DNA from: Spirochaetia bacterium | GTDB taxonomy: Bacteria; Spirochaetota; Spirochaetia; Treponematales; Breznakiellaceae | Direction of reading: 5' to 3' | DNA length: 29,258 nt | NCBI GenBank assembly: GCA_025997595.1 | Contig: BNUU01000025.1 | Coordinates: 1-29,258, forward strand | The notes under the pieces: generated by a model | Told to the model about the DNA's origin: nothing | Seen by the model: only the letters and a program-made list of their open reading frames with translations | The model's database searches: none | Shown: positions 7,001 through 27,580 of the stretch, one piece after another | Layout of the letters: each line of letters starts with the position of its first letter | Position numbering within the stretch: position 1 is the first letter of the stretch | Translations under genes and position numbers: made by a program

Positions 7001-7011
7001 TATCCCCTCCC

Positions 7012-7445: not shown

Positions 7446-7446
7446 C

Positions 7447-10999: not shown

Positions 11000-11007
11000 C
11001 CCACCCC

Positions 11008-11625
11008 CTAAATAAGTACCCGCTTGTACGGTTCAAGGAGCAGCTTCACGTTTTCAGGCATACTTCCCTCAAACTGCTCCCCGCTGGTGCTTGCATTCCT
11101 GCCCCGGCCATTCCCCAACACCCCGATCCGCCGCCCCCGGTACCGGGCCATGTTCCAGGCTGCCAGTTCCAGACAGGCTGCCGCTAAGTCAGCCGGTACT
11201 TCCCCGGTGGCATAGCCCGCCGCATAATGTACCCGAAGGGCAGAAAGCCCCTTGGTCAGCTTCAAGGCGCGTGAGGCGATCAGTGTGTACGGGGTATCAA
11301 TTTCAGTGCCCGGAATCTCTGGTTCGAATGGATCAGGACTTAGGCGGTAAAGTTCAGGCTCCACAATTTCAGAAGCTTCGAGGCCCTGAACTTTCCAGAC
11401 CCCCAGTACCTCAGAAACAGGGTATTGCCGCAGCATAAAGGAGTAATCCCCCATGAATTCAAGGGAATCCGCATAGTTCCGCCGGTAGAGTTTCCTGCGG
11501 CAATATGATTCGGCGGTAGTAGTAGCCGAATTCAGGCAGAATTGGGCCAATGCTTCCTCCCGATCATCCACGCCCAGCACGACTTTGAACTCGTCCAGCG
11601 GGATAAGCGACTGTAATTGGCTCAT
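11008..11625 (-). CDS. Phage head-tail connector (gp6-like), 205 aa
   Basis: The N-terminal half shows the gp6-like connector pattern: LIPLDEFKVVLGVDD, then a helix LAQFCLNSATTTAESYCRRK, a beta segment (YSFMLRQYPVSEVLGVWKVQ), and a C-terminal helical part, VPADLAAACLELAAWNMARY, with RGRRIGVLGNGRGR. Connector proteins join portal to tail in siphoviruses. It is the first gene of the minus-strand operon, with AAGGGA before the ATG. The genes that normally precede it (terminase, portal, protease, capsid) are missing; instead the divergent defence operon begins about 270 bp upstream. Confidence 0.7.
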   Translation of the reverse strand: MSQLQSLIPLDEFKVVLGVDDREEALAQFCLNSATTTAESYCRRKLYRRNYADSLEFMGDYSFMLRQYPVSEVLGVWKVQGLEASEIVEPELYRLSPDPFEPEIPGTEIDTPYTLIASRALKLTKGLSALRVHYAAGYATGEVPADLAAACLELAAWNMARYRGRRIGVLGNGRGRNASTSGEQFEGSMPENVKLLLEPYKRVLI

Positions 11626-11721
11626 ATTTTCCCTTGCATGGGGAAAAACTACCCCTGTTTTGGGAGTCTGTAATTAGGAGTTTTACGCAATTTCAGGGGA
11701 ATTCGGAAAAAAGTGAAGAAT

Positions 11722-11733
11722 TTTCTTAAGAAA
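11722..11733. promoter_or_regulatory. 12-bp perfect palindrome in the divergent promoter region
   Basis: TTTCTTAAGAAA is a perfect palindrome lying between the phage operon start (11625) and the defence promoter (11783-11811). It could be an operator for a dimeric regulator, for instance one acting on both divergent units, but it is AT-rich and may be chance. Confidence 0.3.
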
Positions 11734-11782
11734 GATGCTTCTGAATGGCCTTAACAAAAACTGATTCACATTTTTTGGCTTC

Positions 11783-11811
11783 TTGATGATTCCCTGGCTA
11801 AGCAGTATACT
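11783..11811 (+). promoter_or_regulatory. Sigma70-type promoter of the defence operon
   Basis: TTGATG at 11783-11788, a 17-nt spacer and TATACT at 11806-11811 form a good sigma70-type promoter (4/6 and 5/6 matches). The start would be near 11818, leaving a leader of about 70 nt before the first ORF at 11892. No other comparable promoter was noticed before the downstream genes, which are spaced by -19 to +16 nt, so they probably share this one. Confidence 0.6.
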
Positions 11812-11891
11812 TTATTGGTGAAGATCTTTAAGAATACGGGAGCAGGAAAGCGGGGTGGGTACCGGGTTATTGTGTTCTTCAGGAGTTTTGC

Positions 11892-12092
11892 ATGGACAAA
11901 CACTATGTGGATGAAGAAATGATGGTTATGCATGAATCGGCTCAAACTCTATTCGGGATGGGTCTCATAAATGCAGCCGAAATGAAGGAATTTGACGAGG
12001 ATTGCCTTGCCAAAGAGGATATCACCACCCCCGCAGCCGGCGTTTCCCGGAGCAAAACCATAACTCCGGCCTTTACCAGCCCCCGGTACTGA
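11892..12092 (+). CDS. Short HigA/NadS-type regulator-like ORF, apparently lacking the HTH
   Basis: This 66-aa protein is preceded by CAGGAG at correct spacing. Residues 13-40 (MHESAQTLFGMGLINAAEMK, EFDEDCL) match the N-terminal pattern of HigA/NadS-like antitoxin regulators ('H-E-x-A-x-x-L-x-x-x-G-x-I-x-x-x-x-M-x-E-F-D-x-x-C-L'), as known from that family. In full-length members this is followed by a helix-turn-helix domain; here only about 25 residues remain (ITTPAAGVSRSKTITPAFTS). It is either a truncated relic or a reduced protein. It is first in the defence operon, 16 nt before the methylase, so it may autoregulate or simply be a leader ORF. Confidence 0.55.
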   Translation: MDKHYVDEEMMVMHESAQTLFGMGLINAAEMKEFDEDCLAKEDITTPAAGVSRSKTITPAFTSPRY

Positions 12093-12108
12093 AATTTTTG
12101 GAGCATTG

Positions 12109-13419
12109 ATGGCAAGCAAAAAGGGCAACCATAAAAAAACTGCCGCAAAAACAAAACCCAGGCCTCTCCGTTATCTTGATCTTTTTGCCGGTGCCGGGGG
12201 CCTCTCAGAAGGTTTTTACCGTGCCGGTTTTCGTCCCGTTGCCCATGTAGAACTTTCCACATCTGCCTCTTATACTTTAAAAACCAGGGTGGCAAAACAC
12301 TGGCTGGATGAGCATCAAAAAGAAACTATTTACCTGGATTATCTCAATAGAAAAATATCCAGGGAAGAATTGTATCGCCATATTCCTCAAAAAAAACTGA
12401 ACTCCGTAATAAATGCTGAAATTGGTCAGGAGGAACTTCCTGGCATATTTTCAAAGATTGATGAGCTTGCCGGATCATCCCGAAAAATTGATTTGATTAT
12501 AGGCGGTCCGCCTTGTCAGGCTTATTCCCTTATAGGGCGTGCCCGTGATTCCAACGGGATGCTGGGAGACAAACGCAATTATTTGTATTTATATTATGCC
12601 TCGTTCCTGGCAAAGTATAAGCCAAAGTATTTTGTTTTTGAAAATGTGTTGGGCTTGCGTTCAGCAAAAGATGAAAATGGTGATAAATATCTTGATGCAA
12701 TGAAAGCGTCTTTCAGGGATGCCGGTTATGAAATAGCAGATAGCCTGCTTTCAGCAAAAGATTTTGGGGTTCTCCAGAACCGTAACCGCTTAATTATTGT
12801 TGGCAAATTGACCAAAGATAGTGTCGATTTCCCTGACCTTGTTAAAACTGAAAATACTTCAGTTTTTGTAAATGAAATATTCAAAGATTTACCTGCAATC
12901 CAGGCAGGAGCAGGTTCAGTCGATCCTTGTATGAAAATACCCTATACCGGGACATATCTTTATAATTCAAAAATCAAAAATGATGATATTCCGGTAACCT
13001 GGCATGAAGCACGTCCCAATACAGAACAGGATTTGGAGATTTACCGGCTCGCAGTCAAAAAATGGAAAGATGGCAATCAGCGCCTTTTATATACCGAATT
13101 ACCTTCCCGCTTGAGAACTCATAAAAATTGTAAATCCTTCATTGACAGGTTCAAGGTTGTGGAAGGTGATCAGAAATACGCCCATACGGTAATGGCCCAT
13201 ATTGCAAAAGACGGCCATTATTATATTCATCCGGACATTAAACAGAACAGATCCATAACTCCCAGGGAAGCAGCCAGGCTGCAAACATTTCCTGATGATT
13301 ACTTTTTTGAATCAGAAAGCGAAGTACCTGGTCGAACTGCAGCATTTCAGCAAATTGGCAATGCTGTTCCGGTTTTATTAGCTGAAAGCATAGCTAACGG
13401 TTTATACTCATCATGGTAA
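12109..13419 (+). CDS. dcm: DNA (cytosine-5) methyltransferase
   Basis: This 436-aa protein has all key C5-MTase motifs in order: motif I DLFAGAGGLSEGF (residues about 24-36), IV IGGPPCQAYS with the catalytic Cys (about 132), VI ENV (about 177), VIII LQNRNRLIIVG (about 222), IX SITPREAARLQTFPDDY and X QIGNAVPVLLAESI. The target-recognition region lies between VIII and IX. The ATG at 12109 is preferred over the TTG three bases earlier because GGAG sits 5 nt upstream. It would transfer a methyl group from SAM to cytosine, protecting host DNA. Class 2 DISARM uses a C5-MTase (DrmMII); here it is paired with a DrmD-type helicase and with a Vsr nuclease at the far end of the operon. Confidence 0.9.
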   Translation: MASKKGNHKKTAAKTKPRPLRYLDLFAGAGGLSEGFYRAGFRPVAHVELSTSASYTLKTRVAKHWLDEHQKETIYLDYLNRKISREELYRHIPQKKLNSVINAEIGQEELPGIFSKIDELAGSSRKIDLIIGGPPCQAYSLIGRARDSNGMLGDKRNYLYLYYASFLAKYKPKYFVFENVLGLRSAKDENGDKYLDAMKASFRDAGYEIADSLLSAKDFGVLQNRNRLIIVGKLTKDSVDFPDLVKTENTSVFVNEIFKDLPAIQAGAGSVDPCMKIPYTGTYLYNSKIKNDDIPVTWHEARPNTEQDLEIYRLAVKKWKDGNQRLLYTELPSRLRTHKNCKSFIDRFKVVEGDQKYAHTVMAHIAKDGHYYIHPDIKQNRSITPREAARLQTFPDDYFFESESEVPGRTAAFQQIGNAVPVLLAESIANGLYSSW

Positions 13420-13430
13420 GTAAGTAAGTA
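13416..13430 (+). repeat. Short GTAA tandem repeat between methylase and helicase
   Basis: GTAA is repeated 3.75 times, covering the methylase stop (TAA at 13417-13419) and the start of the 16-nt gap before drmD. Unit gain or loss would not change the methylase product but would alter spacing to the drmD ATG, which has no clear SD of its own. Confidence 0.5.
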
Positions 13431-13435
13431 CACCA

Positions 13436-15682
13436 ATGAAAAATGCTTTATTGGAGCAATACGGACGTCATAAGTTACAGGAACTGCGGCAGTCTCCCTA
13501 TTCCTGTCTCATCGAATCCAAAATTGAGCAAACACCCCACCAGGTTGAAGCATTTGTCGCGGCCATCCAGGCCTTAAATACCGGCGGCATTATCCTTGCG
13601 GACGAGGTCGGCCTTGGAAAAACCATTGAAGCAGGGCTGATTTTAAAGTACCTTATTAAAAAAGGGGCAAAGCGTATATTAATTGCAATGCCTCCTTCTT
13701 TGCGTAAACAATGGCAGGACGAATTATCCGAAAAATTTTTGATAAGTGCGGAGATACCTGAAAGCAAGTATTCCGTCCAGCGCCGGGATGAAGATCATTG
13801 GAAATCCCTTGTCAAAAGAGACGATGCACTTGTTGTAATCACCTCGTATAACTTTGCTCCATGGTTTATCAAAAAGTTTTACGATGTCAAGTGGGATTGT
13901 TTTGTCTTTGATGAAGCCCATCGTCTTCGTAATTTTGGTAACGGTGCAAAAATGCCAAAAGCAATTTTTGATACAACCAGATATGTACCCAAAGTAATGT
14001 TGACCGCAACTCCGCTCCAGAACAACTTACGTGAGCTTTTTGCATTATCACAGTACATAGATGAACGAATATTTGTGAATGAAAAAGTTTTTGAAGAAAT
14101 GTATGTCAGGCCCGAAGATTATAAGGGTCTGAGGGAAACAATAACACCGATACTGCATCGTACTCTTCGTAAAGAAGTCGGTGAATATATGTACTTCAGC
14201 AAACGTGATTGTATGCTGGTAGACTTTAAACTGAGCCGTGATGAAGCTGTTCTTTATCAGCTTGCAAACGATTATTTACAACGTCCTGTTTTGTATGCAG
14301 TTTCTTCCCGGAATAATGCACTGGTTAAAATGGTTGTCCGCAAACTCCTTGCATCTTCAAGCTATGCGGTTATCGAAACTTTTGAGGTATTGCGGGAAAG
14401 ACTTAAAATATTAAAACAGAACACCCGTGCAGAAAAAGCAGATATCAGCTTAAAATCTTTTTTTAGTCTTATTGATGATGAAGATGACAACTCTACCGGG
14501 GACGATATCGAAGAAGATATTGAACAAATCGAGCGTGAACGTTACCGGACAGAAATAGACAATGAACTTTCCGCAATAAATGACATAATCAAAATGGCAG
14601 CCCAAATTAAGTCAAATGCCAAGATAGAAGCTGTTAAAGAAGCGGTTACCTTCGCGTTTGAGTATCACCGGGAAAATAAATTGCCCGAAAAAGCGCTTAT
14701 ATTTACCGAATCCAAACGGACTCAGCGTTATATAGTCGAAGCCCTGACTGCAGCAGGTTTTGAAGGTATAATCATTTTCAATGGCGAAATGAACGACCCT
14801 GAAACCAAAAAGATGTATAACGCCTGGAAAGCGCGTAATCCCGGGCGTGTAACCAACACCCCTGGTATAGATTTAAAACAGGCCATAATTGAACAGTTCC
14901 AGTATGAAGCTAAAATATTAATTGCAACAGATGTAGCAAGCGAAGGCTTGAATCTGCAGTTTTGTGATACCGTAATAAACTATGATCTTCCCTGGAATCC
15001 GATGAAAATTGAACAGCGTATAGGCCGTTGCCATCGTTTCGGACAAACCCGTGATGTATGGGTATACAATTTACTCAACAGGGAAAATGCGGCAGATGCC
15101 CGTGTGTATGAAATACTTGACCAGAAATTCAATCTGTTTAAAGGTGTATTCGGTGCAAGTGATGAAGCCCTGGGATTACTCGAATCCGGTACAAATTTTG
15201 AAAAGAAAATATTGGAAATTTATGAGCATTGCAGGACGGCAGCAGAGTTCAGGCAGGAGTTTAACCGGCTGGAGCGTGAGATAACGGCAAAACGCAGTAA
15301 AAAAGCCAATGAATTAAAACATATACTTATGTCAGTAAGCAGTGACGAGCAGAAAATACACCTTGCAAAAACCGCAGAAATGATAAAAAACTATGTAGGG
15401 AATACGGAACAATGGTCAAAAATAGCCGGGAACATAAAGCCGGTGTACAATACTATATTAAAGATCCAGAATAAAAATATTAGTTTTAATAAACCGGCTT
15501 CTGAGCACGGGTATATTTTTATCGGAGCTTTTCTCAAAAAAGAGCTGTCAGAGTTTATTACGGTATCACAAAACTGCAGATTCAAGCCTTCGCTTGCTAC
15601 ATCTGTTGCAATTAATATTTTAGCTTCATACTGGAACTGTTCAATTATGTCCTGTTTTGTATGCAGTTTCTTCCCGGAATAA
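13436..15682 (+). CDS. drmD: DrmD-like SNF2 helicase, 5' part (frame broken by internal rearrangement)
   Basis: This 748-aa product is of the SNF2-family DNA translocase type. Walker A is DEVGLGKT (residues 56-63), DEAH is at 159-162 (VFDEAHRLRNF), motif III is LTATPLQNN (189-197), motif V is LIATDVASEGLNLQ (about 498) and motif VI is QRIGRCHRFGQ (about 527), so both RecA lobes are complete. At residue 708 the frame enters an inverted 98-bp copy of its own sequence and ends after a 40-residue unrelated tail. The natural C-terminus lies in the following ORF. Removing the 1366-bp net insertion gives an 879-aa protein, close to class 1 DISARM DrmD. In DISARM this protein works with DrmMI and DrmABC; loss of the C-terminal about 170 residues may impair it. 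Confidence 0.85.
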   Translation: MKNALLEQYGRHKLQELRQSPYSCLIESKIEQTPHQVEAFVAAIQALNTGGIILADEVGLGKTIEAGLILKYLIKKGAKRILIAMPPSLRKQWQDELSEKFLISAEIPESKYSVQRRDEDHWKSLVKRDDALVVITSYNFAPWFIKKFYDVKWDCFVFDEAHRLRNFGNGAKMPKAIFDTTRYVPKVMLTATPLQNNLRELFALSQYIDERIFVNEKVFEEMYVRPEDYKGLRETITPILHRTLRKEVGEYMYFSKRDCMLVDFKLSRDEAVLYQLANDYLQRPVLYAVSSRNNALVKMVVRKLLASSSYAVIETFEVLRERLKILKQNTRAEKADISLKSFFSLIDDEDDNSTGDDIEEDIEQIERERYRTEIDNELSAINDIIKMAAQIKSNAKIEAVKEAVTFAFEYHRENKLPEKALIFTESKRTQRYIVEALTAAGFEGIIIFNGEMNDPETKKMYNAWKARNPGRVTNTPGIDLKQAIIEQFQYEAKILIATDVASEGLNLQFCDTVINYDLPWNPMKIEQRIGRCHRFGQTRDVWVYNLLNRENAADARVYEILDQKFNLFKGVFGASDEALGLLESGTNFEKKILEIYEHCRTAAEFRQEFNRLEREITAKRSKKANELKHILMSVSSDEQKIHLAKTAEMIKNYVGNTEQWSKIAGNIKPVYNTILKIQNKNISFNKPASEHGYIFIGAFLKKELSEFITVSQNCRFKPSLATSVAINILASYWNCSIMSCFVCSFFPE
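14283..15558 (+). repeat. Direct repeat copy 1 (1276 bp) within drmD
   Basis: This segment of drmD, encoding residues about 283-708, recurs at 15649-16924 at a constant offset of 1366 bp; I saw no difference between the copies and the translations are identical. Both breakpoints are sharp: before 14283 and after 15558 the two copies differ at once. It contains SNF2 motifs V and VI. Confidence 0.95.
15552..15649 (-). repeat. 98-bp inverted copy of drmD sequence at the duplication junction
   Basis: Exact reverse complement of 14884-14981 (and therefore of 16250-16347), the motif V region around LIATDVASEGLNLQ. It shares 7 bp (AGTTTAT, 15552-15558) with the end of direct copy 1 and 1 bp (G, 15649) with the start of copy 2. 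These microhomologies are typical of template switching. Confidence 0.95.
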
Positions 15683-16924
15683 TGCACTGGTTAAAATGGT
15701 TGTCCGCAAACTCCTTGCATCTTCAAGCTATGCGGTTATCGAAACTTTTGAGGTATTGCGGGAAAGACTTAAAATATTAAAACAGAACACCCGTGCAGAA
15801 AAAGCAGATATCAGCTTAAAATCTTTTTTTAGTCTTATTGATGATGAAGATGACAACTCTACCGGGGACGATATCGAAGAAGATATTGAACAAATCGAGC
15901 GTGAACGTTACCGGACAGAAATAGACAATGAACTTTCCGCAATAAATGACATAATCAAAATGGCAGCCCAAATTAAGTCAAATGCCAAGATAGAAGCTGT
16001 TAAAGAAGCGGTTACCTTCGCGTTTGAGTATCACCGGGAAAATAAATTGCCCGAAAAAGCGCTTATATTTACCGAATCCAAACGGACTCAGCGTTATATA
16101 GTCGAAGCCCTGACTGCAGCAGGTTTTGAAGGTATAATCATTTTCAATGGCGAAATGAACGACCCTGAAACCAAAAAGATGTATAACGCCTGGAAAGCGC
16201 GTAATCCCGGGCGTGTAACCAACACCCCTGGTATAGATTTAAAACAGGCCATAATTGAACAGTTCCAGTATGAAGCTAAAATATTAATTGCAACAGATGT
16301 AGCAAGCGAAGGCTTGAATCTGCAGTTTTGTGATACCGTAATAAACTATGATCTTCCCTGGAATCCGATGAAAATTGAACAGCGTATAGGCCGTTGCCAT
16401 CGTTTCGGACAAACCCGTGATGTATGGGTATACAATTTACTCAACAGGGAAAATGCGGCAGATGCCCGTGTGTATGAAATACTTGACCAGAAATTCAATC
16501 TGTTTAAAGGTGTATTCGGTGCAAGTGATGAAGCCCTGGGATTACTCGAATCCGGTACAAATTTTGAAAAGAAAATATTGGAAATTTATGAGCATTGCAG
16601 GACGGCAGCAGAGTTCAGGCAGGAGTTTAACCGGCTGGAGCGTGAGATAACGGCAAAACGCAGTAAAAAAGCCAATGAATTAAAACATATACTTATGTCA
16701 GTAAGCAGTGACGAGCAGAAAATACACCTTGCAAAAACCGCAGAAATGATAAAAAACTATGTAGGGAATACGGAACAATGGTCAAAAATAGCCGGGAACA
16801 TAAAGCCGGTGTACAATACTATATTAAAGATCCAGAATAAAAATATTAGTTTTAATAAACCGGCTTCTGAGCACGGGTATATTTTTATCGGAGCTTTTCT
16901 CAAAAAAGAGCTGTCAGAGTTTAT
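15649..16924 (+). repeat. Direct repeat copy 2 (1276 bp) within drmD
   Basis: Second copy of 14283-15558. It joins the native 3' end of drmD at 16925. Recombination between the two copies would delete 1366 bp and restore a continuous 879-aa frame; the codon at the join becomes ATA (Ile) in place of ATT (Ile). Confidence 0.95.
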
Positions 16925-17441
16925 AGCCCCGATTCTTATCGCCTTTGATGAAACCGGAAAGATGCTTGATCTTAAAAAGAACGATATTCTTATGACCTTT
17001 AAGGATATCCCTGAAGATTATTTCATTGCAGAAGAAATCAGTGAACCGGAAGCCAAGCTCTTTAATACCTGCCATGATTTAATCATACCAAAAATGATGG
17101 AAGAATATAAAAAGCAAAACAAGCCAATCATGGACCAGAACGATAAACGAATCAAAAATTGGCTGGAAAATCAGCGTGGTCAGTACAAAGCAGATTCTGA
17201 TGAATTGCGTCAGCAGATAAGTGCATTGAAAATTCAGAAAAACACTTCAAAACTCTTTCAGGAGAAAATCGACATTCAAAAGAAAATTGACAGAATGGAG
17301 AAACAGCTTGGTCAGCGGGATGAGAAATTCCATGATAGTATGATTGATATTGAAAAGCAGGCAGAACAGGAGCGTGAAACATTCGCCGCCCGCTTTGCTT
17401 TTGACCCGGTAGTGTTGATAAATCTCGTGGTAAAGTTTTAG
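15657..17441 (+). pseudogene. drmD: DrmD-like SNF2 helicase, 3' part with duplicated C-lobe
   Basis: A 594-aa frame opening with TTG (15657), with the first in-frame ATG at 15696. It repeats the second RecA lobe (motifs V and VI) and then carries the native C-terminal about 170 residues, starting after ELSEFI with APILIAFDETGKMLDLKKND and ending in a long coiled coil (KIQKNTSKLFQEKIDIQKKI ...) and RFAFDPVVLINLVVKF. It lacks Walker A and DEAH, so it cannot be an ATPase alone. No SD is seen, but the ATG at 15696 lies 13 nt after the stop of the upstream ORF, so reinitiation is conceivable. I treat it as the displaced 3' end of drmD. AGGAAGG near its stop serves the next gene. Confidence 0.85.
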
Positions 17442-17455
17442 GAAGGACGGCAGTT

Positions 17456-19135
17456 ATGCAAAAAAGCGGAAAGCTTGAACTCACCTGGGTGGGTAAATAT
17501 GAAGAAAATGCTATAGAGCCGAGAATACTCATGGAAGATAAAAGCAAATCTTATGGAGACCCCAATACTGGCAATATGCTCATACATGGGGATAACCTTA
17601 TAGCGTTAAAAGCATTGGAGCAGGATTTTGCCGGGAAAGTAAAGTGCATATACATTGATCCACCTTACAATGCTGACGCTGCAACGCTATATGAAGATGG
17701 CTTGGAACATTCAATATGGCTAGGGCTAATGCGCAACAGATTAAAAATATTAAAGAATTTATTAACAGATGACGGTAGTATATTAGTCCAGATTGATGCC
17801 TATGAAATGGCCCACTTAAAACTTTTAATGGACGAAATATTTGTCAGAGAAAATTTTGTTAATATCATTACATGTAAAACAAAAGTAGCAGGTGTTAGTG
17901 GAAGTCATTTGGGCAATAGTTTACAAGATAATGTTGAATATATATTATTTTATGCAAAAAATTCGCATGAATTTTCTTTAAATATTGTACCACAAAAACA
18001 GCAAGAACTTATGGATTATATTCAAGGGATGGAAGAATTAGGAAAAAGTTGGAAGTATACAAGTGTCATGAAAAGTATTGATAAAGGAAGATATATTTCT
18101 GATATTATTGCAGGAAACGGTGATGTAATAAAATTGTATTCCCATAATAAAGTTGAAGTCTGTTCTATAAAAGCAATTGCTGACGAATATTTTAATGGTG
18201 ATATAAAGATGGCATACTATAAATATATCAATGAAGTTTTCAGAACTACGAATGCGCAAACTTCGATACGTACAAAAGTTATTGAGGCAATAAAAAATAT
18301 AAGAGGAGAATATTTTAGTATAGAATACATTCCAATAAAAGGAAGAAATGCGGGTAAACTATCTAAATCATTTTACAAAAAAGATAATCTCATAGCATGG
18401 TTAAAAGATGTTGTTGTTTCTAAAGGTCAAAGACTATTAAAATTAGATAATATGGGTAATCTGTGGGATGACATTCAATACAATAATTTAACTAAAGAGG
18501 GTGATGTCCAGTTTCCTAATGGGAAGAAACCCGAGGCACTTATTTCAAGAATTATTGATATGTGTACAGAAAAAGGTGACCTTGTTCTTGATTCATTCGC
18601 TGGTTCAGGTACAACAGGTGCTGTTTCACAGAAAATGGGAAGGCGTTGGATAATAATAGAGCTAGGGGAGCATTGTTATACACATGTCATTCCACGCCTT
18701 AAAAAAGTCATAGACGGTAATGATTCTGGTGGCATTACAGATTCTGTGGGCTGGCAGGGCGGTGGCGGTTTCAAATTCTATGAACTTGCTCCATCGCTAC
18801 TCAAAAAACACCCGAAACTCCCTGTATACCAAATAAACAAATCCTATACCTTTGAAATGCTCTGCGAGGCAATTTGTAAAATAGAGGGTTTTACCTATAA
18901 ACCGGAAGGCGAAATGCATGGTCATAGCAGCGAACGGCGGTTTATTCACGTTACCAGGGAATTTGTGAGCGGTGATTATATTACCAAAATAATGAAAGAA
19001 GTTGGTGAGTATCAGTCGGTATTGATATATGGCATAAAGATTCAATCAGGCCTGCGGCTCCCTGGCAATGTTGAAGTAAAAAAGATTCCGAAAGACCTTC
19101 TCAAAAAATGCAACTTTGAAAGCGAGGTGCGGTAA
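17456..19135 (+). CDS. mod: Type III-like DNA (adenine-N6) methyltransferase, Mod subunit
   Basis: This 559-aa protein has motif IV CIYIDPPYN at residues about 64-72 followed by the SAM-binding motif I LDSFAGSGTTGA at about 377-388, the beta-class order of type III Mod proteins. The region between (about 130-370) is the target-recognition domain and is distinctly AT-richer than the rest. Mod determines the recognition site and methylates one strand, and is needed by Res for cleavage. It starts 14 nt after drmD with AGGAAGG as SD, and its stop overlaps the res ATG (TAATG), so the two are coupled. Class 1 DISARM normally has the larger DrmMI methylase here; this Mod may take its place or be part of an embedded R-M system. 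Confidence 0.87.
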   Translation: MQKSGKLELTWVGKYEENAIEPRILMEDKSKSYGDPNTGNMLIHGDNLIALKALEQDFAGKVKCIYIDPPYNADAATLYEDGLEHSIWLGLMRNRLKILKNLLTDDGSILVQIDAYEMAHLKLLMDEIFVRENFVNIITCKTKVAGVSGSHLGNSLQDNVEYILFYAKNSHEFSLNIVPQKQQELMDYIQGMEELGKSWKYTSVMKSIDKGRYISDIIAGNGDVIKLYSHNKVEVCSIKAIADEYFNGDIKMAYYKYINEVFRTTNAQTSIRTKVIEAIKNIRGEYFSIEYIPIKGRNAGKLSKSFYKKDNLIAWLKDVVVSKGQRLLKLDNMGNLWDDIQYNNLTKEGDVQFPNGKKPEALISRIIDMCTEKGDLVLDSFAGSGTTGAVSQKMGRRWIIIELGEHCYTHVIPRLKKVIDGNDSGGITDSVGWQGGGGFKFYELAPSLLKKHPKLPVYQINKSYTFEMLCEAICKIEGFTYKPEGEMHGHSSERRFIHVTREFVSGDYITKIMKEVGEYQSVLIYGIKIQSGLRLPGNVEVKKIPKDLLKKCNFESEVR

Positions 19136-21801
19136 TGGACGCTGTAGTTAAGAAAATAACATGGGCAATGAGTCTGAGAGAACCGCAAAGCGAAGCCCTC
19201 AACTATTTGCACGATATAATCACTCCCGTTGAATTTAAAACCAATACAAAGTCAGATATTGAAAGGGCTGCAGTAAAGACACAAGCGGAAACTGTTGCTG
19301 CAGAAAAATGTGAAAGCAAACAGTCAATCAAGGTTGCTGATGAGTTCTCTTTCCCGTCTTTTTGCTTTGAAATGACTACGGGCATAGGCAAAACCCGCCT
19401 TATGGGTGCGTCAATTTATCATCTTTATAAAACAAAGGGATATAAGCACTTCTTTATCCTGGCCCCTGGCGATACTATCTATGGAAAATTAAAAAAGGAA
19501 GCCGTCTTTGGTCATCCAAAGTATCTGTTTAAAGGCCTGGAAGCCGAAATGGGCAGACCAAGGATATTTTGCGGTGAGGACTATTTGCAGTACAACCAGT
19601 TGGAACTTGAGGAAACCAGAAGCTCAGAAATTCAATTGTTCATTTTTAATATTGGCAAAATATTCACCCGTGGAGATGTAACATTCAAGTTCCACCGGTA
19701 TCAGGAAACACTCGGAAAGTCCTTTGCGGATATATTGGGAAGTTTTAACGATCTGGTTATCTGTATGGATGAATCCCACAGATATTATGCCCCGGCGTCA
19801 ATGAAAGCAATCGATTACTTGAAGCCCATACTCGGCCTGGAGTTTACCGCTACGCCGAAACCTGAGACAAAAAACGTCATTTACTCATACGGACTTGAAA
19901 AAGGCGCAGGCAAGTTCCTGAAAATCCCTGTTATGAACGGCAGGACAAATATGTCCGGTTATTCGGATACTGACATACAGGAAATGAAATTATCCGATGG
20001 TATGCAATTGCACGAAAATCGTAAAAAGGCTATCGCCAAATACTGTACCGAAAACAATGTGCCCTGGGTAAAGCCCATTGTCCTTGTTGCCTGTAAAGAC
20101 ACAGAACACGCAAAGGAAGTTCGTGCTCTTATTGATTCAGACAGCTTCTTTGGGGGACGGTATAACGGAAAGGTTATTGAAATTCATTCAGGAAGCGGGG
20201 CATCTGAGGCCGAAGAAAATATAGCAAAATTACTTACGATAGAAAGTAATACAAATCCTGTTGAGATTGTCCTTCACGTCTATAAACTGAAAGAAGGCTG
20301 GGATGTAAACAACCTTTTCACAATTATCCCGCTTAATGCCGCAAAAAGCGAAATTCTTGCAATGCAGACAATCGGACGCGGTTTAAGGCTGCCCTTTGGA
20401 CACATTACCGGTGAAACAGACATAGACACCCTCGACATAGTTGCCCATGACCATTATCGTGAAATAGTTGAAGAATTGAAAGCAAATACCTTCTTCAAAA
20501 CCCGTGACCTGGACAAGGAAAAAATTGAGCAGACATCACAGGTAACCATTACTCCTGGCTTTGATGATGCTCAGTTGACTTTGTTTGAAAATTTTGTTGC
20601 TGAAAATAATATCAGCAAAGCGCAGGACATTTCAGACCCGCTTGTCCAGGAACAACTTTATGCCGCATATTTGAAAGCGGTATCCGGTCAGAAGAAAAAA
20701 AATGGCGCCGGAAATGAAGCAGGAGCAGAACCAACACTCTTTGATATGGTTGCCGAAGGTGAGCCGCAATACGGTGGAACAGAAACGGTACAGCAGCCGG
20801 ACACTTTATCAAAAGAAGTAATTATATTGGACAAAAAAACGTTTACCGACAAATTAAATCATTTAGCAGTAACTTGTATCAGCACCCCGATGATATTGGT
20901 ACAACCCTCAACAAGCATCGAACTAAAGCCGGTTACCATTACGTGTTCATACAAGAATGGATTTGTAATTGATTCTTCCCGGGTAGAGCGGTATGACGTG
21001 GTGAATAATCAACTGCTTGAATCGCTTGATGCCGCCATATTGGAAGACCCGGATCCAACAAATACACTTGCCTGTTTGTTACTGGATAATATCAGCGAAT
21101 TCGACAGTGAAGACTCGGATTATATACTTGATATTGTTAATCAGTATTTGAATCAAATCGGCGGTACTGCCGGAAACAAACGACAGGTCGTACGAAAGTA
21201 TGCATCCTTAATCCTGGAGGATATTAAAAAACAGGTGATTAAAGCCATTAAGAGTGATACCCGTATTACTTATAAAGTTCAAAAAGCATTCATAACCTTC
21301 GGGAAGCAGGTAAAAGTCATAAAAGCAGATGGTGAAGTAAACCTGCATACACAGGTGAGCGACAAGAAGGACATACGCCGCTATGTATTTACCGGCTATA
21401 AAAAGTCGTATTATGACAAATACGGCTTTGACAGCGATGCCGAAAGAAGATTTGCTCTTGTTCTTGAAAATGACAATAAAGTTCTCCGGTGGATTAAACC
21501 TCCCCTCAATCAAATGGGAATATATTATGCCGCCGGCCAGCAATATACTCCTGATTTCCTGGTGGAAACAGCGACAGACAAATATATGGTTGAAGTCAAG
21601 GCAGATTATGAACTAAAAAATGAATATGTTCTCCTGAAAAAGCATGAAGGCGAGCTTTGGTGTAAATATGCCTCAAAAGAAGATGCTGACAATAAAAAGT
21701 GGCATTACAGGCTTATACCTGACACACACATAAATATTGGCGACAGCTTTGCTTCAATTCTTGGGTTTTCTTCAGATGTTATAGATTTGGAGGGTGAATA
21801 A
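19135..21801 (+). CDS. res: Type III-like restriction enzyme, Res subunit (helicase-nuclease)
   Basis: This 888-aa protein carries an SF2 helicase with Walker A TTGIGKT (81-87), DESH (about 212), LEFTATPKPE (motif III), and motifs V-VI KEGWDVNN ... QTIGRGLRLPFG. The C-terminus has a PD-(D/E)XK nuclease motif: AERRFALVLE, then YTPDFLVET (Asp at about 805) and YMVEVKAD (E-x-K at about 820). This is the standard layout of type III Res, which uses ATP to translocate or signal along DNA and cuts near the Mod site. It is coupled to mod by a TAATG overlap and followed after one base by drmA, so it is embedded in the DISARM operon rather than adjacent to it. Confidence 0.88.
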   Translation: MDAVVKKITWAMSLREPQSEALNYLHDIITPVEFKTNTKSDIERAAVKTQAETVAAEKCESKQSIKVADEFSFPSFCFEMTTGIGKTRLMGASIYHLYKTKGYKHFFILAPGDTIYGKLKKEAVFGHPKYLFKGLEAEMGRPRIFCGEDYLQYNQLELEETRSSEIQLFIFNIGKIFTRGDVTFKFHRYQETLGKSFADILGSFNDLVICMDESHRYYAPASMKAIDYLKPILGLEFTATPKPETKNVIYSYGLEKGAGKFLKIPVMNGRTNMSGYSDTDIQEMKLSDGMQLHENRKKAIAKYCTENNVPWVKPIVLVACKDTEHAKEVRALIDSDSFFGGRYNGKVIEIHSGSGASEAEENIAKLLTIESNTNPVEIVLHVYKLKEGWDVNNLFTIIPLNAAKSEILAMQTIGRGLRLPFGHITGETDIDTLDIVAHDHYREIVEELKANTFFKTRDLDKEKIEQTSQVTITPGFDDAQLTLFENFVAENNISKAQDISDPLVQEQLYAAYLKAVSGQKKKNGAGNEAGAEPTLFDMVAEGEPQYGGTETVQQPDTLSKEVIILDKKTFTDKLNHLAVTCISTPMILVQPSTSIELKPVTITCSYKNGFVIDSSRVERYDVVNNQLLESLDAAILEDPDPTNTLACLLLDNISEFDSEDSDYILDIVNQYLNQIGGTAGNKRQVVRKYASLILEDIKKQVIKAIKSDTRITYKVQKAFITFGKQVKVIKADGEVNLHTQVSDKKDIRRYVFTGYKKSYYDKYGFDSDAERRFALVLENDNKVLRWIKPPLNQMGIYYAAGQQYTPDFLVETATDKYMVEVKADYELKNEYVLLKKHEGELWCKYASKEDADNKKWHYRLIPDTHINIGDSFASILGFSSDVIDLEGE

Positions 21802-21802
21802 T

Positions 21803-24800
21803 ATGAGTGACCAGTTTGTTCAAAGTGAAATACGTCAAAAACTAATTGAAGCGCTTCGCACAGACCTTATTGGCCCCCGTAAAGGCGTTGACGAGGTTTT
21901 GGAAGAAAATCCTGAATTAAGCTACTTAACCGGAACGCTGCATACTGCCGATGGCACGGATGAAATAGAATTTGATGATCAGGAAGATATTGAACTTGAA
22001 TCAGGCGACAGTGATTCACTTGGCGAAGAGGATAACGAAGACAAGTATTCAGCAAAATTTAAACAGCAATCCTCGTTAGGCATTAGTTTTTATTTGCCCG
22101 AAAGTATTCATTCGTTCAATGTTCATCTTGAGTGGGGAGACTACATTGTTGATAAAAAAGAGGAAGAAGACAAAAACGGCAAGCAAAAGAGCCGCAGGGT
22201 ATATACAAGACTACACCGGGAGTATGAAATTGAAGCGGCATTTGGACTTGATGAAAAAACCAATGAATATGCCGCAGGAGAACAGGACGAGGGTGTAAAA
22301 ATAAAGGTTTCTTCTTATGTGTTAAAGAGCGGTTATAAATTATTCTCTGTTTATGCAACAAATTACCGCAATGCCATAGACGAAACAACCAACGGTACAA
22401 TGTTCCAGACACGGCTTTCCGTTTCTCTTAAAGATGGTGAAGTATTTGTGCCTGAGTATCAGTGCCGCCGTGAGCTTGAAGATGAATATCTTTACGAAAG
22501 CCGTCCTGTTTTTGCACGTGGTCACGGCTGTGCCGCTGATTGGAAATTAAATGAAAGCGGGAATGCAGTTAACATTTTCTCGGAATTTATCCCTGAACAT
22601 GAAATACCCAATGTAAGCCCTAACCTTGATGGATTCACCAAAGGCTGCTTTTCAATGCTCGAATTTTCAAAATCAAAAACAAAAGAACAAACCATTGAGC
22701 ATCTCTCTGTTTTACAAAAAGCTTATGTCTCATGGGTTGATGAACTCTCCCGTAATCCGAAAATGAGCAATCCGCGTTTCGCCGGTGGAAAAGGCGCCGA
22801 AATCATAGGTAAATGCAAAGAACAGGCAGAAAGAATATTGTCAGGTATTCGTTTGCTCCAGTCAAATGATAAGGCATATAAGGCATTCTGTTTTATGAAT
22901 CGTTGTATGTTTATGCAGCGGAGTATTAACAGTTTCTCCAGGCGTTATGGAGCCGGTGTACAGTGCAATCTTCGAGAATATCTTGATACTGACCATAGCG
23001 AATGGCGTGCTTTCCAGATTGCATTTATTCTTCTTAATTTGCCATGTATTATTGATTATAACGATAAATACAGGAACAATGTTGACCTGCTCTACTTCCC
23101 GACAGGCGGCGGGAAAACAGAGGCTTACCTGGGGTTGATAGCCTTTCTCCTTGGGTACAGGCGGCTGACTGCTGACAGTGAAACTGAATTCAATAAAGAT
23201 GGCGGTGTAGCAGTTATCCTCCGCTATACCTTGCGCCTTTTAACAACGCAACAGCGTGACAGATTGACAAAAATGATAATTGCTGCGGAAATCTTGAGAC
23301 GGCAATACTTGCAAAAGGATGGTTCATTCGGAGCAACACCGTTCTCTATTGGATTTTATGTCGGTGGCGCTGTAACTCCAAATCGATTTTCTGAGTTTAA
23401 AAATGACGATGATGACCCTGGTAAGTTTAAGAGAATGGTTGGACAACTTAACAGGCAGCTCATTACGTGCCCCTATTGCGGAAAACCCTTGTCAAACAAT
23501 AACTTTCACGTTGATTTGGATGCAGAAAGTATTGATATTTATTGTTCTGACAAAAACTGTTACTTTTTTGAGTACAATGATGAAAGAATCCCGATACCGG
23601 TATATCTGGTAGACGAACAAATATACCGGAAATGTCCGTCTGTTGTTATTGCGACCGTGGATAAATTTGCACGCTTGCCCTGGGATGTTGCCTGTAATGC
23701 TCTTTTTGGCAGAGTAGACAGGTATTGTCCTCGTCATGGCTATATTGCTATCGGGAAAGAACATGAAGGCAGACATAATCAAAGTAAAACAAATGGATTA
23801 CCGGCGACAATAACACAGCAGGTCAAACCTTTTTACCCGCCTGAACTTATTGTACAGGATGAGTTACACTTGATAACCGGGCCGCTTGGAACCATATATG
23901 GTGCATATGAGGCTGCTATCGAAGAATTATGCTCAATTTCCAGGGAAGGCATAAAAATACTGCCAAAGTACATTGCATCTACAGCCACTATCAGCAATGC
24001 CGATGAGCAGATACGCTGTTTGTATGGACGAACTGAAACAGCCATGTTCCCGCCGGGAGGGTTGGATATCAGAGACAGTTTTTTCACACGGGAAATTCCT
24101 GTTGAGCAGTCTCCATTCAGGAAATATTGCGGGATAGCCGCAAGCGGAAAATCAGTCAAAACCACATTACTCCGCGTTTACGCCATACTTATACAAACCG
24201 CCCTGCATCTGTCGGAGCAGCCGGAATACAAAGACTTGATTGACCCGTATTATACGCTAATCGGATATTTCAACAGTATCCGTGAATTAGGCGGTACGGT
24301 TCGACTGTTACAGGACGACATTCCGAAGCGCCAGAAATGGATTGTGAAACACTACAACCAGAGCAATATAAGATATTTCACTTATAAAGAAGTAACCTCC
24401 CGTATGACCTCCGATAAAATAGCAGGTTTATTAAAAGAGCTTGAAAGTACTATAGTCAACAAAACCAAAGGAATGGATAAAAAAGATGACAATTTTCTTG
24501 ATGTTGCTATAGCCACAAATATGATTTCGGTAGGTTTGGATATAGACCGTCTTGGCCTGATGTGTGTCCTTGGTCAACCGAAGCAAAGTTCAGAATATAT
24601 TCAGACAACAAGCCGTATCGGGCGTGCACATCCGGGTCTTGTTGTAACAGTTTACAATCCGTACAGACCCCGGGACCTTTCGCACTATGAAAATTTCAAG
24701 GGCTATCATTCCCATATCTATCGTTTTGTTGAGGGGACTTCTGCGACCCCGTTCTCTGCTCGTGCCCGCGACAGGGTTCTTCATGCACTTTTTATTGCAC

Positions 24801-25153
24801 TATCCAGGTTACAGATAGAGGCACTTGCGGAAAATTCTTCAGCCGCAGTTATAGACACCATACCCAAAGCAGAAATTGACGTTATTATAAATAAAATTTC
24901 AGCGCGGGTAACTAAAGTCGCACCAAAACTAAAACCAGAGGTAATAACAGAAATAACGGAGTTTATTGATACCTGGAAGACCTGTAATCAGGTCAATGCT
25001 TTACCACTCTATTACTATATCCAGAATACCAAAATAGGTTCGCGATTAATGAACTATTACGGAGAACTATGCAGCAGAAACGAAAAGCCCACACTTAATT
25101 CCATGCGGGAAGTAGAAAATACATCGACGCTCTACTATTACACGGAGGTCTGA
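21803..25153 (+). CDS. drmA: DISARM helicase DrmA
   Basis: This 1116-aa protein starts at ATG 21803 with GGAGGG 8 nt upstream; a GTG three codons earlier (21794) overlaps the SD and is less likely. The N-terminal half is acidic and poorly characterised. Helicase motifs: Walker A FPTGGGKT at about 431, VQDELHLITGPLG (DELH, about 685), STATISN (about 726), ATNMISVGLDIDR and QTTSRIGRAHPG (motifs V and VI). A zinc-ribbon-like insert (CPYCGKP at about 555 and CSDKNC at about 580) lies between the lobes. This combination is characteristic of DrmA. In DISARM, DrmA and DrmB form the core complex that loads on and senses invading DNA. It ends 4 nt before drmB. Confidence 0.88.
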   Translation: MSDQFVQSEIRQKLIEALRTDLIGPRKGVDEVLEENPELSYLTGTLHTADGTDEIEFDDQEDIELESGDSDSLGEEDNEDKYSAKFKQQSSLGISFYLPESIHSFNVHLEWGDYIVDKKEEEDKNGKQKSRRVYTRLHREYEIEAAFGLDEKTNEYAAGEQDEGVKIKVSSYVLKSGYKLFSVYATNYRNAIDETTNGTMFQTRLSVSLKDGEVFVPEYQCRRELEDEYLYESRPVFARGHGCAADWKLNESGNAVNIFSEFIPEHEIPNVSPNLDGFTKGCFSMLEFSKSKTKEQTIEHLSVLQKAYVSWVDELSRNPKMSNPRFAGGKGAEIIGKCKEQAERILSGIRLLQSNDKAYKAFCFMNRCMFMQRSINSFSRRYGAGVQCNLREYLDTDHSEWRAFQIAFILLNLPCIIDYNDKYRNNVDLLYFPTGGGKTEAYLGLIAFLLGYRRLTADSETEFNKDGGVAVILRYTLRLLTTQQRDRLTKMIIAAEILRRQYLQKDGSFGATPFSIGFYVGGAVTPNRFSEFKNDDDDPGKFKRMVGQLNRQLITCPYCGKPLSNNNFHVDLDAESIDIYCSDKNCYFFEYNDERIPIPVYLVDEQIYRKCPSVVIATVDKFARLPWDVACNALFGRVDRYCPRHGYIAIGKEHEGRHNQSKTNGLPATITQQVKPFYPPELIVQDELHLITGPLGTIYGAYEAAIEELCSISREGIKILPKYIASTATISNADEQIRCLYGRTETAMFPPGGLDIRDSFFTREIPVEQSPFRKYCGIAASGKSVKTTLLRVYAILIQTALHLSEQPEYKDLIDPYYTLIGYFNSIRELGGTVRLLQDDIPKRQKWIVKHYNQSNIRYFTYKEVTSRMTSDKIAGLLKELESTIVNKTKGMDKKDDNFLDVAIATNMISVGLDIDRLGLMCVLGQPKQSSEYIQTTSRIGRAHPGLVVTVYNPYRPRDLSHYENFKGYHSHIYRFVEGTSATPFSARARDRVLHALFIALSRLQIEALAENSSAAVIDTIPKAEIDVIINKISARVTKVAPKLKPEVITEITEFIDTWKTCNQVNALPLYYYIQNTKIGSRLMNYYGELCSRNEKPTLNSMREVENTSTLYYYTEV

Positions 25154-25157: not shown

Positions 25158-26924
25158 ATGAGTAAACGGTTTAACCCCAACAAAATCGGTGACATACGAC
25201 CGAATCAGTTAATAACAACTTTTGGTCCCGGCGCCATATTGGATGCCGTAAAGGATTCTGTTACGGTACTCGATACTGCATACTGGAAAAACACTGGAAC
25301 ACCTATTTATGATTCCCGCCTTGCATCCTATTTTGGCGTAGATCACTTCTGCCCGCCAAGAACAAGTTACGATATTGACTTACCGGTTGTTTCGTTTCCA
25401 AATTATCACGTCTGTTCAAATACCAAATGCAATCGTTTGTTCGACATACATGAAAAATTCAATATTGACACATACAATCGTCAGGGTCCGACCTGCCCGG
25501 ATTGCGGATTTCGTGCTTATCCTGCAAGGTTTGTCATTGCTTGTAAAGACGGACACCTGGATGATTTCCCGTGGCGCTGGTGGGCACATAAAGGTGCCAC
25601 TGGCTGCAATAAAAAATTAAAGCTTTATTCCACAGGGGAAACATCCACTTTGGCTGAAATGATCGTGGAGTGTGAATGTGGTAAAGCAAGACGCTCTATG
25701 TCCGGTGCTACTGACCGGTTGAATTTCAGTGAATATGGATATACCTGTACCGGACATCATCCCCATAAGCCAAATAGTCATAATGAAAAATGTGGTTGCA
25801 AAGATATTTTTCCTTCCCAGCGCGGTGCAACAAATATCTACTTTCCTGTACTAAGGAGTGCAATTTCCATACCTCCCTGGACAAACCCTTTATACCTGCT
25901 TCTTGATGAACATTGGCTTCGTTTATGCGAATACGAAAACGATTTTGGCGAGACAGGAGTAAATAAAATTTATGAAAATTACTTTACGTCTTTCCCTCGT
26001 GACGAGTTCAATACAGCAGTAAATAACAGAAAAAAGAAAATTAAAGAGTTTATTGAAATCAAAGAGATGGAATACGCCGCATTTACACACCATGCAGACC
26101 CCACATACAAAAAGGATGTGAAGTATTTTAAGGCAAAAGAAGAACTTCTCCCTTCTTATCTGGAAAAATACTTCTCCCGCCTGATAATGATTGAGCGGCT
26201 TCGGGAAGTAATGGTACTACAGGGATTTATGCGCATAGACCCGCCTGAACCTGAAGCAGACAATTTAAAGAACATGATTAAATTGAATACCAAAAAGCCG
26301 GATTCATGGCTCCCCGGAGTAGAGATACACGGCGAAGGTATCTTTATTGAATTCAATAAGGATGCTGTTTCAAAATGGTTATCTATACCCGCAGTGAAGA
26401 AAATTTCATCACAGTATAAAGAATTCTTTGAAAGATATTCAACATCACGCGGTTGGGAAAATATGAAAGAGCGCAATGGGGAATACGTTCTGTTGCATAC
26501 CTTTGCCCATCTTATTATTAAGGAAATGTCCTTGCAATCTGGTTATTCATCTACTGCCATTCGTGAAAGGATATACAGCAGTTCTTCAATGTGTGGCGTT
26601 CTGTTTTATACCGGAAGTTCAGATAAAGAAGGTTCACTCGGAGGTTTGGTAGAACTTGGCGAAGAATCAAAATTCAGAAAACTAATTAAGGCTGCCATTG
26701 AAAACGCGCTTCTTTGTACGACTGACCCTGAATGTTCAAACAGCCATATTGATCCTGACAATCTCAACGGTTCAGCCTGCCACTCTTGCTGTATGATTGC
26801 CGAAACGGCTTGCGAAAATGGTAACCGTTTGCTTGACAGAAGTTTAATCGTCCCCCTCGACGGAAAAGAGGAATTAAGCTACTTCAAAGATATGGTAGGA
26901 GAATTATGCGGAATCAGTCTTTAA
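25158..26924 (+). CDS. drmB: DISARM protein DrmB (DUF1998)
   Basis: This 588-aa protein opens with the typical DrmB start GDIRPNQLITTFGPGAILDA. Cys clusters at VCSNTKCNRL and TCPDCGFRAYP and later VECECGKARRS suggest zinc sites. The C-terminal DUF1998 domain is clear: LLHTFAHLIIKEMSLQSGYS, then FYTGSSDKEGSLGGLVEL and a final Cys-rich motif (TTDPECSNSH ... ACHSCCMIAETACENGN, RLLDRSLIV). DUF1998 proteins partner with SF2 helicases; DrmB binds DrmA in DISARM. GGAGG (25144-25148) is the SD. The 3' end overlaps drmC by 19 nt. Confidence 0.9.
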   Translation: MSKRFNPNKIGDIRPNQLITTFGPGAILDAVKDSVTVLDTAYWKNTGTPIYDSRLASYFGVDHFCPPRTSYDIDLPVVSFPNYHVCSNTKCNRLFDIHEKFNIDTYNRQGPTCPDCGFRAYPARFVIACKDGHLDDFPWRWWAHKGATGCNKKLKLYSTGETSTLAEMIVECECGKARRSMSGATDRLNFSEYGYTCTGHHPHKPNSHNEKCGCKDIFPSQRGATNIYFPVLRSAISIPPWTNPLYLLLDEHWLRLCEYENDFGETGVNKIYENYFTSFPRDEFNTAVNNRKKKIKEFIEIKEMEYAAFTHHADPTYKKDVKYFKAKEELLPSYLEKYFSRLIMIERLREVMVLQGFMRIDPPEPEADNLKNMIKLNTKKPDSWLPGVEIHGEGIFIEFNKDAVSKWLSIPAVKKISSQYKEFFERYSTSRGWENMKERNGEYVLLHTFAHLIIKEMSLQSGYSSTAIRERIYSSSSMCGVLFYTGSSDKEGSLGGLVELGEESKFRKLIKAAIENALLCTTDPECSNSHIDPDNLNGSACHSCCMIAETACENGNRLLDRSLIVPLDGKEELSYFKDMVGELCGISL

Positions 26925-27580
26925 CAATTGATATATTAGCTGATGAACTTCGTAATTTGCTTCTGGACAGTGAAAAAATCACAGAAGGCATTAGCTTAAT
27001 AAAACATGAGTTCCCTGGCTTTTCTGATGATGATGCGTTAAAAGTTTACCAGCTTGCAGCAGCGCTTAATCGCAAACCATCAGAAGAAACCATCGAAATT
27101 GTTTCTACAACGCCTGTCTCTTTCCTGGCAAAGACCCGCAAAACAAGACCTGTTATAGAAGAATTACTTAATAGTGCTGAAAACAGTATTTTGCTTACAG
27201 GGTACTCAATCTCTGATTATTTTGACAATTTTATGAAACTGATAAATATTAAAAGCAAGCAGGGTGTAGTTGTTGAATTATTTGTAAATAAATATGAACA
27301 AGTACAGCCAGTATTATCTGATATAATACATACGAATCGCCGGTATTTTAAAGTCTATGAATATTCAGGAAAAACCGACGATAAAATGGCAGCATTACAC
27401 GCAAAGATAATTCTCGTCGACAATCAGAAAATGCTTGTCTCATCTGCCAATCTTTCATACCATGGACTGGATGGTAATATAGAAATCGGAACACTGGTGA
27501 CATCCAGTAAGAAAGTGTCTCAAGTACTTGAAATATTTTCAGATCTGAAACGTCAGAAAATATTTACCCTGATAAGTTAA
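26906..27580 (+). CDS. drmC: DISARM phospholipase D-like nuclease DrmC
   Basis: This 224-aa protein has one PLD-type HKD motif: HAKIILVDNQKMLVSSANLS at about residues 165-184, with H-x-K-x4-D and the following S-S-A-N, as in DrmC and NucA-like nucleases. The upstream half holds RPVIEELLNSAENSILLTGY, the usual lead-in strand of the PLD fold. A single HKD implies dimerisation. The start ATG has AGGAG at good spacing inside the drmB 3' end. In characterised DISARM systems DrmC is accessory. The operon continues into vsr after 11 nt. Confidence 0.88.
   Translation: MRNQSLTIDILADELRNLLLDSEKITEGISLIKHEFPGFSDDDALKVYQLAAALNRKPSEETIEIVSTTPVSFLAKTRKTRPVIEELLNSAENSILLTGYSISDYFDNFMKLINIKSKQGVVVELFVNKYEQVQPVLSDIIHTNRRYFKVYEYSGKTDDKMAALHAKIILVDNQKMLVSSANLSYHGLDGNIEIGTLVTSSKKVSQVLEIFSDLKRQKIFTLIS

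What the first reader, a model, noticed from the sequence alone, without database searches (positions are those of the whole stretch)
13436..17441. drmD carries a direct duplication with an inverted copy at the junction
14283-15558 is repeated at 15649-16924 (1276 bp, offset 1366, no mismatch seen). Between them lies 15552-15649, an exact reverse complement of 14884-14981. Junctions have 7-bp and 1-bp microhomology. This duplication-inversion-duplication layout is the signature of replication template switching (two switches: forward to reverse strand, then back). It shifts the frame and splits an 879-aa SNF2 helicase. Lack of divergence points to a very recent event.
Basis: seen in the sequence. 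Interest (0 to 1): 0.8.

Follow-up and report, generated by a model that had tools for sequence, protein, structure and literature searches.

The report
Amplification chimera inside a phage-defence gene
The odd duplicated-and-inverted stretch in a bacterial phage-defence gene is really in the assembled sequence, but it looks like a copying error made in the test tube while DNA from very few cells was amplified, not a mutation of the living bacterium.

Summary
14283-15558 equals 15649-16924 (1276 bp, no mismatch); 15552-15649 is the exact reverse complement of 14884-14981 (98 bp); the joins overlap by 7 bp and 1 bp. It breaks drmD of a DISARM operon.

The window's assembly has the marks of a single-cell style de Bruijn assembly with k=127. 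There, 10 of 111 contig ends are fold-back inverted joins, against 0 of 131 control ends; same-genus G001, set apart, has 3 of 29. Close inverted pairs number 17 in 1.034 Mb against 1 in 1.036 Mb of named contigs. Orientation, distances and the 7-bp overlap fit published phi29 chimeras; the 1-bp overlap fits less well. Zero divergence says nothing about age at k=127.

The broken protein was listed from this contig only. drmD is open (872-896 aa) in 27 of 28 named loci; the 28th runs off its contig.

Most likely an amplification chimera unrolled by the assembler; a real mutation is not excluded without reads.

The parts
13436..15682 (+). drmD ORF 1 (748 aa): SNF2 and Helicase_C domains; the last ~41 residues come from the spacer and the shifted frame of copy 2
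14283..15558 (+). direct copy 1 (1276 bp)
14884..14981 (+). source of the inverted block
15552..15649 (-). inverted copy of 14884-14981 (98 bp); the 90 bp 15559-15648 between the two direct copies are the bridge
15552..15558 (.). join 1, 7-bp overlap
15649..15649 (.). join 2, 1-bp overlap
15649..16924 (+). direct copy 2 (1276 bp), identical to copy 1
15657..17441 (+). drmD ORF 2 (594 aa), C-terminal part, matching DrmD profile 286-872 of 872
12106..13419 (+). drmMII, C5 cytosine methylase (context)
17456..19135 (+). type III Mod-like N6/N4 methylase (context)
19135..21801 (+). type III Res-like subunit (context)
21794..25153 (+). drmA (context)
25158..26924 (+). drmB (context)
26906..27580 (+). 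drmC, PLD-like (context)

Best explanation
The structure is an in-vitro chimera. [quoted passage not shown] It copied 98 nt backwards, switched again near 14884, and resumed forward synthesis at 14283. Reads across this joined molecule made a loop in a k=127 de Bruijn graph, and the assembler walked the loop once, writing 14283-15558 twice around a 90-bp bridge. drmD in the cell is probably uninterrupted. Shown: the exact anatomy, the k=127 marks, and the excess of inverted joins in this assembly. Inferred: the amplification step, the order of the switches, and the loop walk.
For: Fold-back ends: 10 of 111 contig ends examined in the window's assembly are exact inverted copies (31-118 bp, partners within 1.8 kb), against 0 of 64 readable ends from four other family assemblies (G002, G003, G008, G012) and 0 of 67 ends of named contigs; Fisher p = 3e-4. 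Exact inverted pairs of at least 31 bp within 3 kb: 17 in 1,033,786 bases of this assembly (two are the finding itself), 1 in 1,035,938 bases of 80 named loci. k=127: the window's first 127 bases equal the end of contig C38, C40 closes on itself by 127 bp, and C6 and C44 begin with a 127-bp word repeated 2.3-2.4 kb further on. The contigs seen (C1-C61, C120-C139) run in length order down to 1049 bp, as in an unbinned assembly; the contigs seen of four of the five family controls are unordered, and the shortest control contig seen is 2500 bp. Literature fit: 406 of 475 phi29 chimeras inverted, annealing over 2-21 nt (PMC1855051, passages); about 91% inverted in PMC6515389 (passages), about 70% in PMC4595205, which also gives an overlap peak at 6 nt, mostly 5-8, distances 0-5000 nt with a peak at 250-300, and chimeras of 'two or more parts' (Results). 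Here: two inverted switches, 577 and 601 nt, overlaps 7 and 1 bp. Termite-gut SAGs, 15 of the MDA-in-AGM ones Spirochaetia, were assembled with SPAdes -sc at k 21-127, the MDA-in-AGM libraries being read on MiSeq with a 600-cycle kit; 6-8% chimeric reads in that method's E. coli and mock-community tests (PMC9579161, passages and section 8). Only 2 reads of 250-300 bases could supply all 216 bridge 127-mers. The 748-aa form is listed from one contig, this one.
Against: No reads or coverage were available. That this genome was MDA-amplified is inferred, and its record is unnamed. Same-genus G001 also has fold-backs (3 of 29 readable ends). I set it apart, after seeing the result, as a second likely amplified assembly; counted as a control instead, the contrast is 10 of 111 against 3 of 160, p = 0.009, and a cause shared by the genus is not formally excluded. 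Two-switch chimeras are rare: 1,010,258 two-level against 38,865,360 one-level read pairs in PMC4595205. Join 2 has only 1 bp of overlap, below the usual 5-8. No second dup-inv-dup was seen, and the only exact direct repeats of 100 bp or more in 40 further stretches and in 40 more (236,981 bases) are the 127-bp words of C6, C40 and C44. Fold-back ends are dead ends, whereas this structure returns to the forward strand and was kept as the main path.
Confidence: 0.8

Rival explanations
1. A real, recent mutation in the cell: replication template switching (FoSTeS/MMBIR-like) made a DUP-TRP/INV-DUP in drmD and broke the gene.
For: Exact two-switch geometry with 7-bp and 1-bp overlaps; the same pattern is known from PLP1 and MECP2 in humans (PMC6902434, passages). 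The bridge is continuous and survived assembly.
Against: The assembly is enriched in short inverted joins. The broken form is listed from this contig only (best 120 of 7999 shown). The downstream drm frames are open, though that would also hold for a very recent break. Zero divergence is not evidence, since both copies share one k=127 path.
Confidence: 0.1
2. An artefact of library making rather than of MDA, such as fold-back strands from enzymatic fragmentation, carried into the contig by the assembler.
For: Gives short inverted joins with microhomology too (recalled). The candidate source study used the QIAseq FX library kit; that this kit fragments enzymatically is recalled.
Against: More than one read must agree on the same two joins (at least 2 of 250-300 bases, 9 of 150), which single library molecules give less easily than an amplified chimera.
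Confidence: 0.07
3. A reversible off-switch: the 1276-bp direct repeats let homologous recombination restore drmD, so part of the population keeps DISARM silent.
For: Long identical direct repeats so close together should recombine readily (general knowledge); the rest of the operon has open frames.
Against: None of the 28 named loci compared shows it: drmD is open at 872-896 aa in 27 and runs off the contig in the 28th. No sign of a programmed site was found. The evidence for an artefact applies here too.
Confidence: 0.02

Closest known systems
phi29 MDA chimeras (Lasken and Stockwell 2007, PMC1855051; Tu 2015, PMC4595205)
   Same: Inverted joins between segments a few hundred bases apart, short overlaps, sometimes more than two parts; short inverted joins are enriched in the same assembly.
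   Different: Two switches that return to the original strand are a minority; join 2 has only 1 bp of overlap.
DUP-TRP/INV-DUP complex rearrangements (FoSTeS/MMBIR; PMC6902434, passages)
   Same: Same order: duplicated flanks around a third, inverted copy; two template switches.
   Different: The human cases described there are far larger, mostly mediated by inverted repeats, and were found in patients' genomic DNA; here 98 bp inverted, 1276 bp duplicated, in a draft assembly only.
Tandem inversion duplication (TID) of Salmonella (recalled; seen only as a term in search listings)
   Same: Two direct copies flanking an inverse one in a bacterium (recalled).
   Different: TIDs were selected and verified genetically (recalled); no such evidence here.
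DISARM with DrmD (class 1 type; class definition recalled)
   Same: drmD, drmA, drmB, drmC called by PADLOC.
   Different: Also has drmMII, and a type III Mod plus Res between drmD and drmA; a Res-like gene follows drmD in 24 of 28 named relatives too.

Membership tests
phi29 MDA chimera | inverted orientation of joined segments | tested here: met
   both joins are inverted
phi29 MDA chimera | segments close together (0-5000 nt) | tested here: met
   577 and 601 nt
phi29 MDA chimera | overlap at the join, mostly 5-8 nt | tested here: inconclusive
   7 bp at join 1 (fits), 1 bp at join 2 (below the usual)
phi29 MDA chimera | many inverted joins elsewhere in the same assembly | tested here: met
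   10 of 111 ends against 0 of 131 control ends, G001 (3 of 29) set apart; 17 against 1 inverted pairs per ~1.03 Mb
phi29 MDA chimera | source DNA was amplified | not testable with these tools
   record unnamed; inferred from contig order, 1-kb floor, k=127 and fold-backs
phi29 MDA chimera | absent from unamplified DNA | not testable with these tools
   no reads or second sample
DUP-TRP/INV-DUP (MMBIR) | direct copies flanking an inverted third copy, two joins | tested here: met
DUP-TRP/INV-DUP (MMBIR) | present in genomic DNA of the organism | not testable with these tools
   one draft assembly only; the broken protein is listed from one contig
DISARM (DrmD type) | drmA, drmB, drmC, drmD | tested here: met
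   PADLOC hits
DISARM (DrmD type) | adenine methylase called DrmMI | tested here: inconclusive
   the neighbour scores best as MTase_III; no DrmMI among the 25 of 58 families shown, the other 33 were not shown

The most novel reading that the evidence does not exclude
A real double template switch in a living spirochaete-like gut bacterium silenced DISARM by a structure that ordinary recombination between its 1276-bp direct repeats can undo, so that a costly defence is kept off but recoverable in part of the population.
Probability: 0.02. Interest if true: 0.6.

Novelty: not a real feature. Interest (0 to 1): 0.12.

Why it matters
It is a warning for genome scans: single-cell style assemblies can hold inverted, microhomology-joined chimeras that imitate template-switch mutations and make intact genes look broken. 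Counting fold-back contig ends (here 10 of 111 against 0 of 131) may be a quick test for whether an assembly can be trusted on such calls; it still needs calibration on assemblies of known origin. If the event were real, it would be a neat bacterial DUP-TRP/INV-DUP at base resolution in an anti-phage gene.

Tried and rejected
Chance repeat: rejected, exact matches of 98 and 1276 bp. Repeat family or mobile element: not supported, the genome search found only the copies in this contig and the repeat finder nothing else in the window. Old duplication: no mismatch, though identity is weak evidence here. A broken form shared by relatives: not found. Of the 40 relatives P0002-P0041 (60% identity or more), 36 are 869-902 aa; four are shorter (593, 691, 729, 760 aa), and I did not check whether contig ends cut those. 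A close copy in the viral collection: none, best 41% identity over the 594-aa piece. Plasmids: 15 records, each matching at most 11% of the query. 16S rRNA to name the organism: none found. The four SAGs of PMC13067680 (passages) were considered as source and rejected on size and scaffold number (3.06-3.69 Mb, 121-312 scaffolds, against 2.26 Mb, 139 contigs). Those of PMC9579161 fit in kind but are not proven. One search for papers holding all six terms on single-cell, SPAdes, chimeric, MDA, loop and tandem duplication returned 0; that is no proof of absence. My notebook says 16 inverted pairs; the recount is 17. One search counted 3 of 10 G001 fold-backs, one of them masked sequence; one search dropped it and, with more ends, gives 3 of 29 (63, 43 and 26 bp).

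Full report
Observation. The structure is in the sequence exactly as described. 14283-15558 and 15649-16924 are identical over 1276 bp and cannot be extended on either side; 15552-15649 is the exact reverse complement of 14884-14981 (one search reports the same places, with the direct copy cut at 300 nt and the inverted arms extended to 111 nt at 98%). The joins overlap by 7 bp and by 1 bp, and the two switches span 577 and 601 nt. In copy-number terms 14884-14981 is present three times, the middle one inverted, flanked by duplicated sequence: a DUP-TRP/INV-DUP. The repeat finder reported no other repeat of 22 bp or more in the window, and a search of the genome with the repeated segment hit only these places.

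What gene is hit. Both pieces are DrmD: ORF 13436-15682 matches PADLOC DrmD profile positions 3-698 of 872, and ORF 15657-17441 matches 286-872. Aligned with 11 relatives, the first piece leaves the family at about residue 707. Neighbours score as DrmMII, type III Mod, type III Res, DrmA, DrmB, DrmC and Vsr. I compared 28 of the 80 named loci (L012-L039, the top of its list), plus two unnamed and two viral ones: among the 28, drmD is an open frame of 872-896 aa in 27, and in the 28th (L037) it runs off the contig. Among proteins, the cluster of the 748-aa form is listed with one contig, of this window's length, and three member sequences; 36 of the next 40 relatives (60% identity or more) are 869-902 aa. 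Only the best 120 of 7999 scored hits were shown. So intact relatives exist, and the broken form was not seen elsewhere.

What assembly it lies in. The window is contig C25 of a 2,262,343-base, 139-contig assembly, 78.73% complete, 0.04% contamination. The first 127 bases of the window equal the end of C38, and C40 closes on itself by 127 bases; C6 and C44 start with a 127-base word that recurs 2.3-2.4 kb further on. This is the mark of a de Bruijn assembly with k=127. The contigs seen run in length order down to 1049 bases, as in an unbinned assembly with a 1-kb floor. G001 of the same genus is in length order too in the parts seen, while the contigs seen of G002, G003, G008 and G012 are unordered; the shortest control contig seen is 2500 bases.

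Fold-back test. I asked how many contig ends are exact inverted copies (at least 25 bp, starting within 13 bases of the end) of sequence within 3 kb. In the window's assembly it is 10 of 111 ends, from 61 of 139 contigs, lengths 31-118 bp, all below k. In G001 it is 3 of 29 readable ends. In G002, G003, G008 and G012 it is 0 of 15, 0 of 18, 0 of 17 and 0 of 14 readable ends. In named contigs, mostly labelled MAG, it is 0 of 67 ends. Fisher for 10 of 111 against 0 of 131 is p = 3e-4; with G001 counted as a control, 10 of 111 against 3 of 160, p = 0.009. I set G001 apart after seeing it, because its contig order also looks unbinned. Counting all exact inverted pairs of at least 31 bp within 3 kb, this assembly has 17 in 1,033,786 bases and 80 named loci have 1 in 1,035,938. 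Two of the 17 are the finding; some, such as the 136-bp pair in C11 around a short ORF, may be natural.

Literature. Lasken and Stockwell (PMC1855051, passages): 406 of 475 MDA chimeras inverted, 337 of those within 10 kb, with 2-21 complementary nt at over 70% of joins. Tu et al. (PMC4595205, abstract and Results): two or more parts, about 70% inverted, distance peak 250-300 nt in a range to 5000, overlap peak 6 nt; two-level chimeras are 1,010,258 against 38,865,360 one-level. ChimeraMiner (PMC6515389, passages): on average 91% of single-end chimeras inverted. Aoki et al. (PMC9579161, passages and section 8): SAGs from the gut of a termite, 15 MDA-in-AGM ones Spirochaetia, SPAdes -sc with k up to 127, contigs above 1 kb, 6.28% and 8.22% chimeric reads in its MDA-in-AGM tests on E. 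coli and a mock community. The best named match of the 594-aa piece is a Treponema MAG (L012, 66%; from a termite gut, as I recall the isolate name). That the window's assembly is one of Aoki's is a guess.

How it most likely arose. A phi29 3' end displaced near 15558 annealed by 7 bp to the opposite strand at 14981, copied 98 nt, and switched back to 14283. A single switch gives a fold-back, which dead-ends in the graph as at the 10 contig ends. Only a double switch returns to the forward strand and makes a loop that an assembler can walk, so the rare two-switch kind is the one expected to survive inside a contig. The bridge is touched by 216 unique 127-mers, which 2 reads of 250-300 bases can supply (9 of 150). 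At k=55 and k=77 part of the bridge words recur elsewhere in the window; at k=99 and k=127 all are unique, so the bridge separates from its source only at those word sizes. How SPAdes walks loops is recalled, not tested.

At k=127 both copies are one path: 2300 window positions hold 127-mers that occur twice. Zero divergence is therefore automatic and does not date the event.

Verdict. Observation confirmed; template-switch geometry right; placement in the living cell unsupported. Amplification chimera 0.80, library chimera 0.07, real mutation 0.10, reversible switch 0.02. Reads from unamplified DNA would settle it.

Noticed in passing
12106-28008: DISARM with drmMII-drmD-type III Mod-type III Res-drmA-drmB-drmC-vsr. 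A drmMII-like stretch lies just upstream of drmD in 28 of 28 named loci compared, and a Res-like gene follows drmD in 24 of 28 (two of the other four are cut by their ends).
   Followed up: partly
2102-11625: Prophage-like genes on the minus strand (primase/helicase, minor tail, head-tail adaptor; 3 of 8 ORFs tested had PHROGs hits) lie directly beside the DISARM operon.
   Followed up: partly
L137 (G000:C40), 1-14862: Contig closes on itself by exactly 127 bp, yet its ORFs look like ordinary chromosomal genes (ABC transporter, nicotinate-type, biotin-ligase-like; names by eye). Possibly a direct-join chimera loop rather than a plasmid.
   Followed up: no
L102 (G000:C6) 1-2420 and L186 (G000:C44) 1-2539: Contig starts with a 127-bp word repeated at 2294 and at 2413: unresolved graph loops, possibly further direct chimeras. 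One search found no other place for these words in the stretches held.
   Followed up: partly
L107 (G000:C11) 997-1574: 136-bp perfect inverted repeat around a 130-aa ORF that looks like a truncated transposase (by eye); may be a natural element or another join.
   Followed up: no
L195 21-380; L200 6357-6598: Further exact inverted pairs of 91 and 97 bp, the same size class as the 98-bp block of the finding.
   Followed up: no
27592-28008: Vsr-type mismatch nickase at the end of the operon, in the same operon as a C5 cytosine methylase (drmMII).
   Followed up: no
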